Below are positions 14,401-30,327 of a DNA stretch of 39,973 bases, piece after piece. A program made the translations under genes and the position numbers. Source of the DNA: Hyphomicrobiales bacterium (GTDB lineage: Bacteria; Pseudomonadota; Alphaproteobacteria; Rhizobiales; Aestuariivirgaceae); assembly GCA_027024225.1 (NCBI GenBank), contig JALVSR010000058.1, forward strand, positions 1 through 39,973, written 5' to 3'. A model generated the notes under the pieces. The model worked only from the letters and a program-made list of their open reading frames with translations, searched no databases and was not told the DNA's origin. Each line of letters starts with the position of its first letter. Position 1 is the stretch's first letter.

Positions 14401-16827
14401 TCAGCCGCGCAAGGTTCCGCCGGTGGCCTTCGCCACGGCAGCCACCACCTTGTCCATGACCCGCTGGATTTCCTCGTCCGTCAGCGTCTTCTTGCGCGGC
14501 TGCAGGACGATCTCGATGGCCACGGACTTCCTGCCCTCGCCCAGCTGTTCGGCCGCTTTCGCGCCCGCAAACACGTCGAACACGCGCACGTCCGAAATGA
14601 GCGCCTTGTCCGCCCCTTTCGCGGCGCGCACGATGTCGCCGGCGGCCACCGCCTCGTCCACCACGAAGGCGAGGTCGCGCTTGAGCGGCATCAGGTCGGG
14701 CGCGTCCAGTGGCGGTTTGGCCGTGCCCTTGCGCTTTTTCGCGGGCAGTTCGTCGAGGAAGATCTCGAAGCCCGCCACCGGGCCCTTCACGTCCATCTCT
14801 TTCAGCACCGCCGGGTGCAGCTCGCCAAAATGGCCCAGCACCTTTTTCGGCCCCAGCTTCAGCGCGCCCGAGCGGCCCGGGTGATACCATTCGGGCGCCC
14901 CTTCCACATCGATCTGTATCGAATCGGGATTCAGCCCGGCGTTTTCCAGCACCGCCAGCGCATCGGCCTTGGCGTCGAACACGTCCACCGGCCGCGCTCG
15001 CTCCGCCCAGTGGCGCGGCACGGCCATGCCCTGACGAACGCCGGCGGCCATCACCCGCTCGCCCTCCGGTTCGTCGGAATGATAGACGCTGCCCACCTCG
15101 AACAACGCCACGTCGCCAAAACCGCGCGCCACGTTGCGCCCCGCAGCGGCGATGAGGTTCGGCAGCAGCGAGGGGCGCATGTCGGACAGCTCCGAGGAAA
15201 TGGGGTTGGCCAACTCCAGCTCCTTCGCCCCGCCGCCGAACAGCTCGGCATGGCGTTTCGGCAGGAAGGAATAGGTGACGGCCTCCGCCAGCCCGCGGGA
15301 GGCCAGCAGGTGGCGGGCACGCACCTGTTTCAGCTGCAGGTCCGTCAGCACCGGCCGGGCCACCGCATGCGGCCGCTCCAGCGGCACGGAAGGCAGCTCG
15401 TCAAGCCCGACGATGCGCACGATCTCTTCCACCAGGTCGGCCTCGCCATGGATGTCCGGCCGCCAGGTGGGGGCCACGGCCTTCAGGACCTCGCCCTCGT
15501 CGGTGACGACGAAGCCGAGTTTCTCCAGGATCTCCACCTGTTTCTCCAGCGGCACCTCCAGCCCGGCCAGCGTCTTCACCCTGTCCTTGCGCAATTGAAA
15601 AGTGCGCTCCTCTTCCGGCTTCACCGCCGGCTTGCCCGCCTCCACCAGGTGCGAGCACTCGCCGCCGCACAGCTCCAGGATCAGCTTGCTGGCCAACTGC
15701 GCCCCGGCGGGCAGAAAGGCCGGATCCACCCCGCGCTCGAAGCGGTAGCGCGCATCGGTCATGATGTTCAGCTTGCGCCCGGTCATGGCGATGTTGATGG
15801 GGTCGAAGTAGGCGACTTCGAGGAACACCTCGGTGGTTTCCTCCGTGCAGCCCGACTCCTCGCCGCCGATGACGCCGCCGATGGCCTCCGCCCGCTCCTC
15901 GTCGGCGATCACCACCATGCTCTCGTCCAGCTCGTAGGTGTTGCCATCCAGCGCCAGCAGTTTCTCGCCCGGATGCGCGTAGCGCACGTGAATGTCGCCA
16001 TGCACCTTCTGCGCGTCGAACACATGCAGCGGACGATTGAACGAGAACATGATGTAATTCGTGATGTCCACCAGCGCCGAGATGGGCCGCGCGCCCACCG
16101 CCCGCAACCGGTGCTGCATCCACGCCGGCGAGGGGCCGTTCTTCACCCCCCGGAAGTGCCGCCCGATGAAATGCGGACACGGCGGGTTTTCCTCCGCGAA
16201 GTCGAGATGCACCGCGATGGGCGACTCATAGCCGCCCTCGATGTTCGGCACCTCGATGGGTTTGAGCGTGCCCAGCCCGGCAGCGGCGAGATCGCGCGCC
16301 ACGCCATACACGCCCAGCGCATCGCCGCGGTTTGGCGTAATCGCAATCTCGATGACGGGGTCGTTCATGCCCAGCGCCTCGGCCGCCGGCATGCCAAGCG
16401 GCGTGTCTTCGGGCAGCTCGATGATGCCTTCGTGGTCGTCGGAAATTTCCAGCTCGCGCTCCGAGCACATCATGCCCGCCGACTCCACGCCGCGCACCTT
16501 CGCCACCTTCAGGTCAAGCCCGGTGCCGGGAATGTGCGTGCCCGGCGGAGCGAACACGCCCACGAGCCCCGCCCGCGCGTTGGGCGCGCCGCACACCACC
16601 TGCACCGGCTCGCCGCGGCCCGTGTCCACCATGCACACCTTCAGCTTGTCGGCATCCGGGTGCTTTTCGGCCGAGATGATTTTCGCCGTGGTGAAGTCCT
16701 TCAGCTTCTGCGAGGGGTCGATGACTTCCTCCACCTCCAGCCCGATGCGATTGAGCGTTTCCACGATCTCGTCGAGCGAGGCGGAGGTGTCGAGAAAATC
16801 CTTCAGCCAGCCAAGCGTGAACTTCAT
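14401..16827 (-). CDS. pheT: Phenylalanyl-tRNA synthetase beta subunit
   Basis: This 808-residue subunit joins PheS in the (alpha-beta)2 synthetase. The domains run in order: an N-terminal tRNA-binding OB fold (about 40-150, with [13 protein letters not shown]), the B3/B4 editing region (about 210-400, [11 protein letters not shown]), the B5 domain (about 405-475), the catalytic-like domain (about 480-690, [14 protein letters not shown]) and the C-terminal anticodon-binding domain (about 715-808). E. coli PheT is 795 residues. The start at 16827 is decided by a four-base overlap (ATGA) with the end of pheS, which implies translational coupling. GGGAGGG lies upstream. Confidence 0.98.
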
Positions 16828-17909
16828 GCCGAAAGCCCTCCCGCCAGAGTGGGGATCTGCAGCGCGGAGAATCCATAATGTTTCAGCCAGCGGATGTCGG
16901 CGTCGAAGAAGGCGCGCAGATCGGGGATGCCATATTTGAGCATGGCCAGGCGGTCGATGCCGATGCCAAAAGCATAGCCCTGCCATTCATCCGGGTCGAT
17001 GCCGCCGGCCCTCAGCACATTGGGATGCACCATGCCGGAGCCCAGGATCTCCAGCCAGTCATCGCCCTCGCCCACCTTCACCTGGCCGCCTTCCCAGGAG
17101 CAATTGATATCCACCTCCATGCTGGGCTCGGTGAAGGGAAAATGCGAGGCGCGGAAACGCATCTTCACGTTTTCCGTCTCGAAGAAGGCCTTGCAGAACT
17201 CCTCCAGCGTCCATTTCAGGTGGCCCATGTGGGTGTCGCGATCGATGACCAGCGCCTCCACCTGATGAAACACCGGCGTGTGCGTGGGGTCGGAATCGCA
17301 GCGGAAGACACGCCCCGGCGCGATGATGCGGATGGGGGGCTGTTGCGTCTCCATGGTGTGGATCTGCACCGGCGAGGTGTGGGTGCGCAAAAGCTTGCGC
17401 GCGCCGTCTTCCTTCTCGTGGAAATAGAAGGTGTCGTGCTCCTGCCGCGCCGGGTGCTCGGGCGGAATGTTCAGCGCCTCGAAGTTGTACCAATCGGTTT
17501 CGATGTGCGGGCCCTCGGCGACGGAAAAGCCGAGATCGGCGAAAATTTCCACCACCTCTTCCCACACGTGCGAGACGGGGTGCACCACGCCCGCACGCTC
17601 CGGCCGGGCGGGCAGGGTCACGTCCACGCGCTCCTTCGCCAGCTTCTCTTCCAGCGCCCGCTTTTCCAGCGCCGCGCGGCGAGAGGCGATAGCCTTCTCC
17701 AGCTGCTGACGCGCCTCGTTCAGCACCCGGCCGCGCTCGCGGCGCTGCTCGGGGTCGAGCTTGCCCAGCTCCTTCATCTGCGCCGAGACGAGGCCTTTCT
17801 TGCCGAGGTATTTCACCCGCACTTCGTCCAGCGCGCGGATGTCTTCCGCCGCCTCGATTTCCCCGATCGCCGCGCCGACAAGCTCTTGCAGTTCGTCCTG
17901 CCCGCTCAT
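16824..17909 (-). CDS. pheS: Phenylalanyl-tRNA synthetase alpha subunit
   Basis: This 361-residue class II synthetase subunit activates Phe and charges tRNA-Phe. The N-terminal coiled coil (about 1-90, [11 protein letters not shown]) is followed by the catalytic core. Motif 2 is in [15 protein letters not shown] and [16 protein letters not shown], with [11 protein letters not shown] after it. Motif 3 is [19 protein letters not shown] near the C-terminus. The ATG at 17909 follows GGAGAAA. It is 362 bases downstream of rplT. In E. coli pheST is attenuated through a leader peptide. Here the leader region instead holds long inverted repeats and no obvious Phe-rich peptide. Confidence 0.98.
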
Positions 17910-17945
17910 GATGTTTCTCCGGCCTGTTCACTGTATTGGCTGAGA

Positions 17946-17981
17946 GAAGCGCCAATGGCGGCTTTTCGCCATTGGCGCTTC
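17946..17981. repeat. Perfect 15-bp inverted repeat upstream of pheS
   Basis: Arms 17946-17960 and 17967-17981 are perfect reverse complements around a 6-base loop. In the pheS transcript this would be a very stable hairpin ending about 36 bases before the start codon. There is no T-run after it on either strand, so it is not a standard intrinsic terminator. Confidence 0.9.
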
Positions 17982-17992
17982 ATTGCCATTCT

Positions 17993-18076
17993 TTTCCCTG
18001 CCGGTGAATGTCAAGGCCAAAAGCCGCCTCGCGGTGCGCCCACAGGGCGCAGCCTTGACATTCACCGGCAGGGAAA
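17993..18076. repeat. Perfect 25-bp inverted repeat with a nested hairpin
   Basis: Arms 17993-18017 and 18052-18076 are perfect reverse complements over 25 bases. The 34-base loop itself contains TGCGCCC-ACA-GGGCGCA (18035-18051) and a short CCGC-CTC-GCGG. Each arm carries TTGACA. A structure this long is far beyond chance. It could be an RNA control element of the pheS leader or a small repeat element inserted in the gap. Confidence 0.9.
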
Positions 18077-18131
18077 CACGCATCTTCATTTCTCTTCCAG
18101 CAAGTCAAACAAGCATTGCCATGGCCCAATG

Positions 18132-18218
18132 AAAAACCGGCCTGCCGGACGCCATCGGTCCTTGCGCGGCGCGGAGATGTCGCGCCACGGTCTTGACCAA
18201 TAGGGCCCGGCAGGCCGG
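18132..18218 (-). terminator. Large branched terminator-like structure after rplT
   Basis: A 12-bp perfect inverted repeat (CCGGCCTGCCGG at 18137-18148 and its complement at 18207-18218) brackets an inner GGCGCG/CGCGCC hairpin (18168-18186). On the minus strand the last arm is followed by TTTTTC. This fits a terminator or partial terminator between rplT and pheS, though the loop is much longer than usual. Confidence 0.5.
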
Positions 18219-30294: not shown

Positions 30295-30327
30295 GGGGCG
30301 CCGATGATCCGCGATCATCGGCGCCCC
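30295..30327 (-). terminator. Strong hairpin between ubiG and rpmA
   Basis: A perfect 15-bp stem (30295-30309 and 30313-30327) has a 3-base loop. On the minus strand it is followed by a T-rich tail (GTTCTTTCT), so it most likely ends the rplU-rpmA transcript. It may also stop ubiG transcripts from the other side, although that side lacks a T-run. Confidence 0.75.

What the first reader, a model, noticed from the sequence alone, without database searches (positions are those of the whole stretch)
17946..18076. Nested perfect inverted repeats in the pheS leader
Two separate perfect inverted repeats (15 bp and 25 bp, the longer with a further 7-bp hairpin in its loop) are packed into 131 bases directly upstream of pheS. 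Neither has a T-run, so they are not simple terminators. They could be a new RNA control element for pheST, replacing leader-peptide attenuation, or a small palindromic repeat element. A 53-codon frame with GGAAGAG before it (17928-18089, minus) runs through both.
Basis: partly seen in the sequence, partly recalled or inferred. Interest (0 to 1): 0.55.

Follow-up and report, generated by a model that had tools for sequence, protein, structure and literature searches.

The report
Dispersed hairpin repeat, not pheS leader
The two hairpins in front of pheS are one copy of a small mobile-looking DNA repeat scattered through this bacterium and its close relatives; its long stem differs in sequence from copy to copy yet usually still pairs with itself, which makes it a useful natural case for studying how hairpins stay intact.

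Summary
The inverted repeats are real and beyond chance, but they are not a pheS control RNA. The 131 bases are one of 21 full-length copies in this genome. Matches occur in 9 of 11 genomes of the genus and in 0 of 29 relatives outside it. In the rplT-pheS gap 2 of 7 readable genomes carry the unit, in opposite orientations.

The unit has two hairpins. H1 (15 bp) is nearly constant. H2 (about 26 bp) has a constant inner end, but 12-13 bp of its stem differ between copies while both arms change together (20 of 26 pairs). The H2 loop occurs in both orientations; one pair of copies has identical free arm segments and an inverted loop. H2 also occurs without H1, and in another family inside a different frame. 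Units lie in convergent or co-directional gaps, 1 of 48 in a divergent one. One site is empty in 6 relatives and decayed in a seventh.

Best reading: a non-autonomous palindromic repeat (REP/MITE-like, new variant) whose H2 arms are kept paired at DNA level, probably by template switching. The mobilising enzyme is unknown.

The parts
17934..17945 (+). left edge of the repeat unit (family pattern about TTTTGGCTGAGA)
   Evidence: base counts over 50 short units
17946..17981 (+). H1: 15-bp perfect hairpin, loop 6, nearly constant between copies
   Evidence: copies were found partly through H1, which favours its constancy
17982..17992 (+). linker between H1 and H2 (family pattern about nTTGCCATTCT)
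   Evidence: 0.31 mean difference per site in its first 10 bases
17993..18017 (+). H2 arm 1: free outer part, then constant TGTCAAGG
18018..18051 (+). H2 loop with two small hairpins; family members have it in either orientation
18052..18076 (+). H2 arm 2, CCTTGACA and the complement of the free part
18077..18078 (+). right edge (family pattern GAAAC A)
18137..18218 (-). not part of the repeat: GC-rich hairpin followed by T's between rplT and the repeat; the feature that relatives keep in this gap
   Evidence: (by eye in 6 of 7 gaps), fold of two
16824..17909 (-). pheS (context)
   Evidence: Pfam PF01409 and PF02912
18272..18628 (-). rplT (context)
   Evidence: Pfam PF00453

Best explanation
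The feature is one copy of a dispersed, non-autonomous palindromic repeat of about 131-150 bp, built from two hairpin modules, which lies in the rplT-pheS gap by insertion and has no special tie to pheS. SHOWN: it is repeated across the genome, found in one clade, present or absent at orthologous places, placed mostly at gene ends, and its H2 arms change together. INFERRED: it spreads or spread by an unidentified transposition activity (a 254-bp form with terminal inverted repeats carries one unit). INFERRED: H1 and the inner end of H2 stay constant because a protein reads them. INFERRED: the middle of the H2 stem is free in sequence but stays self-complementary because hairpin-directed template switching during DNA synthesis copies one arm onto the other, which can also turn the loop around. 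Any effect on pheS would be a by-product, such as a hairpin in the mRNA.
For: 21 full-length copies in the own genome, matches in 9 of 11 genus genomes and 0 of 29 outside. Empty site in 6 relatives and a decayed remnant in G008 at one site. rplT-pheS gap: unit in 2 of 7 genomes, opposite orientations. H2: 20 of 26 pairs with changes on both sides, 124 double-change cells against 29.8 in 500 shuffles and at most 33 in slid registers; H1 none. 51 short units: 1270 of 1306 arm pairs Watson-Crick, 16 G.T, 12 A.C, 8 other, so no clear mark of selection on the RNA of one strand. Loop in one orientation in 14 units, the other in 30, unclear in 7; L236 and L237 share their 13 free bases and differ by a loop inversion. 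A 254-bp carrier with inverted ends and 8-bp direct repeats beside four copies. Template switching is described as a source of perfect stems, multibase compensatory change and loop inversion in PMC8794818 (abstract and passages).
Against: The mechanism step is not observed, only inferred. Template switching alone does not explain why the inner TGTCAAGG and the H1 arms hardly drift or why the free part keeps its length. In 20 MITE-borne copies mismatches are 15 G.T to 2 A.C, which leans towards RNA selection, though these copies share ancestry. No terminal repeats or target duplications were found for the short unit itself, no mobilising enzyme was found, and placement at gene ends also fits an RNA role. 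At the L015/L216 site the stems differ more than the flanking genes do.
Confidence: 0.58

Rival explanations
1. The repeat is kept because it works as an RNA element at gene ends: its hairpins stop transcription or protect mRNA 3' ends, and the H2 stem covaries because RNA pairing is selected.
For: 18 of 48 units in convergent gaps and 1 in a divergent gap, against 17 and 47 of 203 other gaps; convergent units lie a median 32.5 and 28 nt from the two stop codons. G.T exceeds A.C in MITE-borne copies, 15 to 2. REPs with the same placement are thought to act as RNA (PMC3733652, passages).
Against: No T-run directly after either stem; the one terminator-like pattern found is at shuffle level. In short units G.T (16) hardly exceeds A.C (12). 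Loops occur in both orientations within each gap class. A copy has decayed in G008 and six relatives do without one at that site. The gap classes rest on a home-made gene caller.
Confidence: 0.25
2. H2 is a substrate recognised by shape, as a folded single DNA strand, by a transposase or recombinase (working like an attC site or the ends of IS200/IS605 elements), so only copies with a paired stem moved, whatever the stem sequence.
For: Free stem of nearly set length between constant edge and constant core, in two unrelated outer frames (12-13 bp here, 8 bp in G070); H2 found with and without H1.
Against: No Y1 transposase match in the own genome (the relatives were not searched); no candidate enzyme; integrases were not searched. 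It does not by itself explain why stems differ so much between copies whose other parts are alike.
Confidence: 0.1
3. The variety of H2 arises by recombination or gene conversion between copies, which swaps arms and loops.
For: L348 in G070 has one arm unlike the other (3 of 8 mismatched) and its loop and right arm match L345. L013 and L217, at orthologous places, share most of the arm but have different loops.
Against: A crossover in the core gives mismatched arms, as in L348, so it cannot alone keep 27 of 51 units perfect; 46 of 47 sampled 12-mers are distinct.
Confidence: 0.05
4. A pheS-specific leader RNA or attenuator.
For: Position 36 nt before pheS and covarying stem.
Against: Many copies elsewhere; absent, or reversed with another stem, in 6 of 7 readable gaps other than or including relatives as listed (5 absent, 1 reversed); no Rfam family at its gathering score.
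Confidence: 0.02

Closest known systems
REP sequences / REPINs, including GTAG and CGTC REPs (PMC3116915, abstract seen; PMC3733652, passages seen)
   Same: Short palindromic intergenic repeats in many copies, mainly between convergent or co-directional genes, non-autonomous
   Different: Larger two-hairpin unit; no GTAG or CGTC tag at the foot of H1; no Y1_Tnp match in the own genome; one hairpin with free but paired stem and invertible loop
[quoted passage not shown]
   Same: The 254-bp form has inverted ends GGGGCTGTCC...GGACAGCCCC and 8-bp direct repeats beside four copies
   Different: Most units here (51 of 71 classed) are not of that form and show no such ends; no autonomous partner found
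Template-switch hairpins (PMC8794818, abstract and passages)
   Same: Multibase compensatory change and loop inversion
   Different: Described there in RNA genes; here in a dispersed intergenic repeat with stems of about 26 bp and loops of about 31 nt
Integron attC sites (recalled)
   Same: Structure kept while part of the stem sequence varies
   Different: Dispersed, not in cassette arrays at the copies read; boxes and integrase not tested

Membership tests
REP / REPIN | Many copies in intergenic space, avoiding divergent gaps | tested here: met
REP / REPIN | GTAG or CGTC tag at one end of a 20-40 bp palindrome | tested here: not met
   H1 is flanked by GAGA or AAGA and by nTTGCC
REP / REPIN | RAYT (Y1 transposase) in the genome (for the GTAG type) | tested here: not met
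   PF01797: 0 matches in the own genome, controls positive in 5 of 14; relatives not searched
MITE | Terminal inverted repeats | tested here: met
   254-bp form only: both ends found by pattern in 9 copies; not seen for the short unit of the window
MITE | Target-site duplication | tested here: inconclusive
   8-bp repeats beside L066, L017, L011, L211; not beside L016, L018, L073, L074, L081; none identified for the short unit
MITE | Related autonomous transposon | tested here: inconclusive
   None among end-motif loci of the genus; several loci stop at contig ends
pheS leader RNA / attenuator | Conserved at the pheS leader of relatives and specific to it | tested here: not met
Intrinsic terminator | Stem followed at once by a T-run | tested here: not met
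   scan finds one site at shuffle level
Known Rfam family | Score at or above gathering | tested here: not met
   0 matches at gathering in the window; best sub-threshold scores far below it
Integron attC | R/L boxes and an integron integrase | not tested
   Considered from memory only

The most novel reading that the evidence does not exclude
H2 is a new kind of mobile or recombining hairpin recognised by shape: a constant core (TGTCAAGG, loop, CCTTGACA) on a stem of set length whose sequence is free and is rewritten, so that most copies bear their own self-complementary tag. The same core has been taken into unrelated outer frames in different families of the order and is turned over and re-copied by an unidentified enzyme.
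Probability: 0.12. Interest if true: 0.75.

Novelty: new variant of a known kind. Interest (0 to 1): 0.45.

Why it matters
It corrects a plausible but wrong reading (a pheS riboregulator). It also supplies some 70 copies in which one hairpin does not covary and its neighbour covaries almost freely, with inverted loops. Covariation is often taken as proof of a functional RNA; here it appears in a dispersed repeat whose short units show no clear strand preference in their mismatches. That makes the question of how much covariation comes from DNA-level copying directly testable, by mutation accumulation or by timing copies at orthologous sites.

Tried and rejected
pheS leader or attenuator: rejected by copy number and by relatives. 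Known RNA family: none at gathering score. RAYT-driven REP: no Y1_Tnp match in the own genome, relatives not searched. IS1595 as mover of the 254-bp form: one transposase, in 1 of 11 genus genomes, with other end sequences. Autonomous element with the MITE ends: none seen in the loci at hand, several of which stop at contig ends. Variable stem copied from the insertion site: not supported, best matches in own flanks 9.59 of 13 against 9.73 in other copies' flanks, 41 copies. sigma-70 promoter from the TTGACA in the arms: none found by scan. H2 core on plasmids, phages or viral contigs: no match to one core sequence or to one exact pattern. A convergent gap (L009) gave no empty site: in G002 its two flanks lie about 7 kb apart and elsewhere they fall on different contigs or only one was found.

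Limits of the counts. Copies were found through similarity to this copy and to H1, so the constancy of H1 is favoured by the sampling; the inner motif of H2 was used as an anchor, which favours its constancy too. From relatives I fetched the best listed matches, not all (the list is cut). Of 83 H1 places 71 with a stem score of 13 or more entered; 12 were dropped, among them places with H1 but no H2. Searches count mismatches differently: 33 uses a fixed 26-position register on 55 non-MITE copies (21 perfect), 54 counts within the called arms of 51 units (27 perfect). Three of 51 units without both neighbours were left out. 'MITE' copies were classed by their H2 sequence, not by their ends. 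A2 mixes copies with their own reverse-strand matches, so I rely on A1. L358 was anchored wrongly by the script. In one search a distant actinomycete row (L137) was dropped, and the gaps of G003, G005, G008 and G010 were not resolved. In one search each genome had at most 11 candidates scored, under stricter filters; one of its four matches outside the genus (G132) is a terminator-like hairpin unrelated to H2.

Full report
OBSERVATION. Perfect inverted repeats of 12 bp or more with loops up to 60 number 5 in the window and 0 in each of 5 shuffles. pheS and rplT are confirmed by Pfam; both are on the minus strand, so the element as written (plus strand) is antisense to them. The 53-codon frame exists but is open in the same register in 17 of 71 copies.

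IT IS A DISPERSED REPEAT. A DNA search of the own genome (2.2 Mb, 155 contigs) with the 131 bases gave 50 alignments at about two dozen places. I fetched copies with about 1 kb of flank, aligned 21 full-length ones (A1) and built a covariance model (R1). With it the own genome has 21 full-length copies at 116 bits or more and one at 75; 9 of 11 genus genomes have matches (not G005, G009) and 0 of 29 genomes outside the genus. In a draw of 297 genomes from the order, four outside the genus had weak matches. By pheS the nearest named isolate is Thermopetrobacter sp. TC1 (78% identity); the other close hits are MAGs labelled Hyphomicrobiales or Alphaproteobacteria, 77-89%.

THE rplT-pheS GAP. The gap could be read in 7 genomes. 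This one and G004 (same gap sequence as JALUAB010000084.1) have a unit, in opposite orientations and with different H2 stems. G006 has another palindromic repeat at the place, G007 a different long inverted repeat, and G001, G002 and G009 no such insert. What relatives keep is a GC-rich hairpin followed by T's between rplT and this place (window 18137-18218, minus): seen by eye in 6 of the 7 gaps, folded for two. That terminator- or attenuator-like hairpin, not the finding, is the conserved feature of the gap.

ANATOMY. Left edge about TTTTGGCTGAGA; H1, 36 nt, 15-bp stem; linker about nTTGCCATTCT; H2, about 26 bp; right edge GAAACA. Among the short units the mean pairwise difference per site is 0.05 and 0.02 in the two H1 arms, 0.40 in the H1 loop, 0.31 in the first 10 linker bases, 0.62 in 12 free bases of H2 and 0.06 in the next 6 inner bases (H1 and the inner motif were used to find and anchor the copies, which favours their constancy). 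Of 47 sampled 12-mers 46 are distinct. In A1, H1 has no pair changed on both sides (11 of 15 pairs never vary), H2 has 20 of 26; double-change cells are 124 against 29.8 in 500 shuffles, and no slid register exceeds 33. In 51 units 1270 of 1306 arm pairs are Watson-Crick, 16 G.T, 12 A.C, 8 other; 27 units have perfect arms, 17 one mismatch, 7 more. In 20 MITE-borne copies G.T is 15 and A.C 2; these share ancestry, and the result leans the other way from the units.

THE LOOP TURNS. The loop of H2 resembles one consensus in 14 units, its reverse complement in 30, and neither clearly in 7; all 20 MITE-borne copies have the first form. L236 and L237, two places in G002, have the same 13 free arm bases and a similar H1 but opposite loops; inverting one loop makes the alignment run through with few differences.

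TWO CARRIERS, AND H2 ALONE. Twenty of 71 copies, classed by their H2 sequence, belong to a longer repeat of about 254 bp with ends GGGGCTGTCC...GGACAGCCCC; both ends were found by pattern in 9 of them, 253-256 bp and one of 229. 8-bp direct repeats are visible beside L066, L017, L011 and L211, not beside L016, L018, L073, L074 and L081. No autonomous element with these ends was found. H2 also occurs without H1: eight places in the own genome (L351-L356, L358, L361), L363 in G006 and L366 in G002; L362 in G006 keeps part of H1 by eye. In G070, another family of the order, 10 copies carry the same core (TGTCAAGG, a loop with CCGCTTCGCGG, CCTTGACA) in a quite different outer frame, again with a free segment, here of 8 bp; it is perfectly paired in 8 of the 10, L343 has one mismatch, and L348 has three and looks like a hybrid of two copies. 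G167 and G053 have single H2-like hairpins.

MOBILITY AND AGE. At a junction of two co-directional genes (they look like aroK and aroB; names recalled, not searched) this genome has a unit; of seven relatives compared, G002, G004, G005, G006, G007 and G010 have none and G008 has a decayed remnant. At another site G000 and G008 share the upstream junction and G004 has a unit in the same gap and orientation; the H2 stems of the three differ, with both arms changed together, and the loops are of two types. L013 and L217 share most of the arms but not the loops. So copies are inherited, decay, and have H2 changed.

POSITION. With a home-made gene caller trained on 12 window genes, 48 short units with both neighbours called lie in 18 convergent, 29 co-directional and 1 divergent gaps; 203 other gaps of the loci at hand split 17, 139 and 47 (Fisher p 2.6e-6 for convergent, 3.4e-4 for divergent). 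Convergent units lie a median 32.5 and 28 nt from the two stop codons. The same preference is reported for REPs (PMC3733652, passages). It fits harmless insertion as well as an RNA role.

MECHANISM. Paired change with little one-strand wobble in the units, plus loop inversion, is what hairpin template switching would leave. PMC8794818 (abstract and passages) names loop inversion with compensatory change as the strongest support for that process and found it very rare in rRNA. I take it as the likeliest reason why H2 stays paired while its sequence drifts. It does not explain the constancy of H1 and of the inner TGTCAAGG, or the nearly set length of the free segment; these point to a protein that reads the edges and the core. 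No such protein was found here. The free segment does not appear to be copied from the insertion site.

LITERATURE. Searches for Thermopetrobacter, for REP with compensatory or template switching, for alphaproteobacterial palindromic repeats, for quasipalindromes, for RIME/Bru-RS, and for loop inversion with REPIN returned nothing that describes this repeat in the listings I saw; two other searches returned no paper. The library holds open-licence papers only, so this is weak evidence of novelty.

VERDICT. Ordinary in kind (a palindromic intergenic repeat), unusual in its H2. The pheS reading is not supported.

Noticed in passing
window 18137-18218, minus strand: GC-rich long hairpin followed by T's between rplT and the repeat, kept in 6 of 7 readable gaps of the genus by eye; a candidate terminator or attenuator of its own.
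   Followed up: partly
L066 and other MITE-borne copies, about 254 bp: A MITE with ends GGGGCTGTCC...GGACAGCCCC, which carries one H1-H2 unit; 8-bp direct repeats beside four copies; no autonomous partner seen.
   Followed up: partly
L350, L357, L359, L360 (own genome): A further family of long hairpins, arms of about 25-27 bp with a 10-11 nt loop, again alike but not identical between places and paired within each.
   Followed up: no
L337-L345, L348 (G070, another family of the order): The H2 core in a different outer frame (CCTTACATTCCATGGTGAG ... GCATTTTC) with a free 8-bp paired segment; L348 looks like a hybrid of two copies.
   Followed up: partly
L189 (G006) and L184 (G007), rplT-pheS gap: Other palindromic repeats sit in the same gap in two relatives, so the place seems to tolerate or attract such inserts.
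   Followed up: no
L238 (own genome, C26:1579-2004): One IS1595-type transposase with ends GGCGATATTATA...; the same end sequence follows a MITE left end in G010 (L287).
   Followed up: no
window 30295-30327: Another perfect 15-bp inverted repeat, loop 3, outside the finding.
   Followed up: no
G003 C15, C16, C18; G008 C139, C141, C318: Several copies lie at contig ends, so the repeat seems to break draft assemblies and copy numbers are lower bounds.
   Followed up: no
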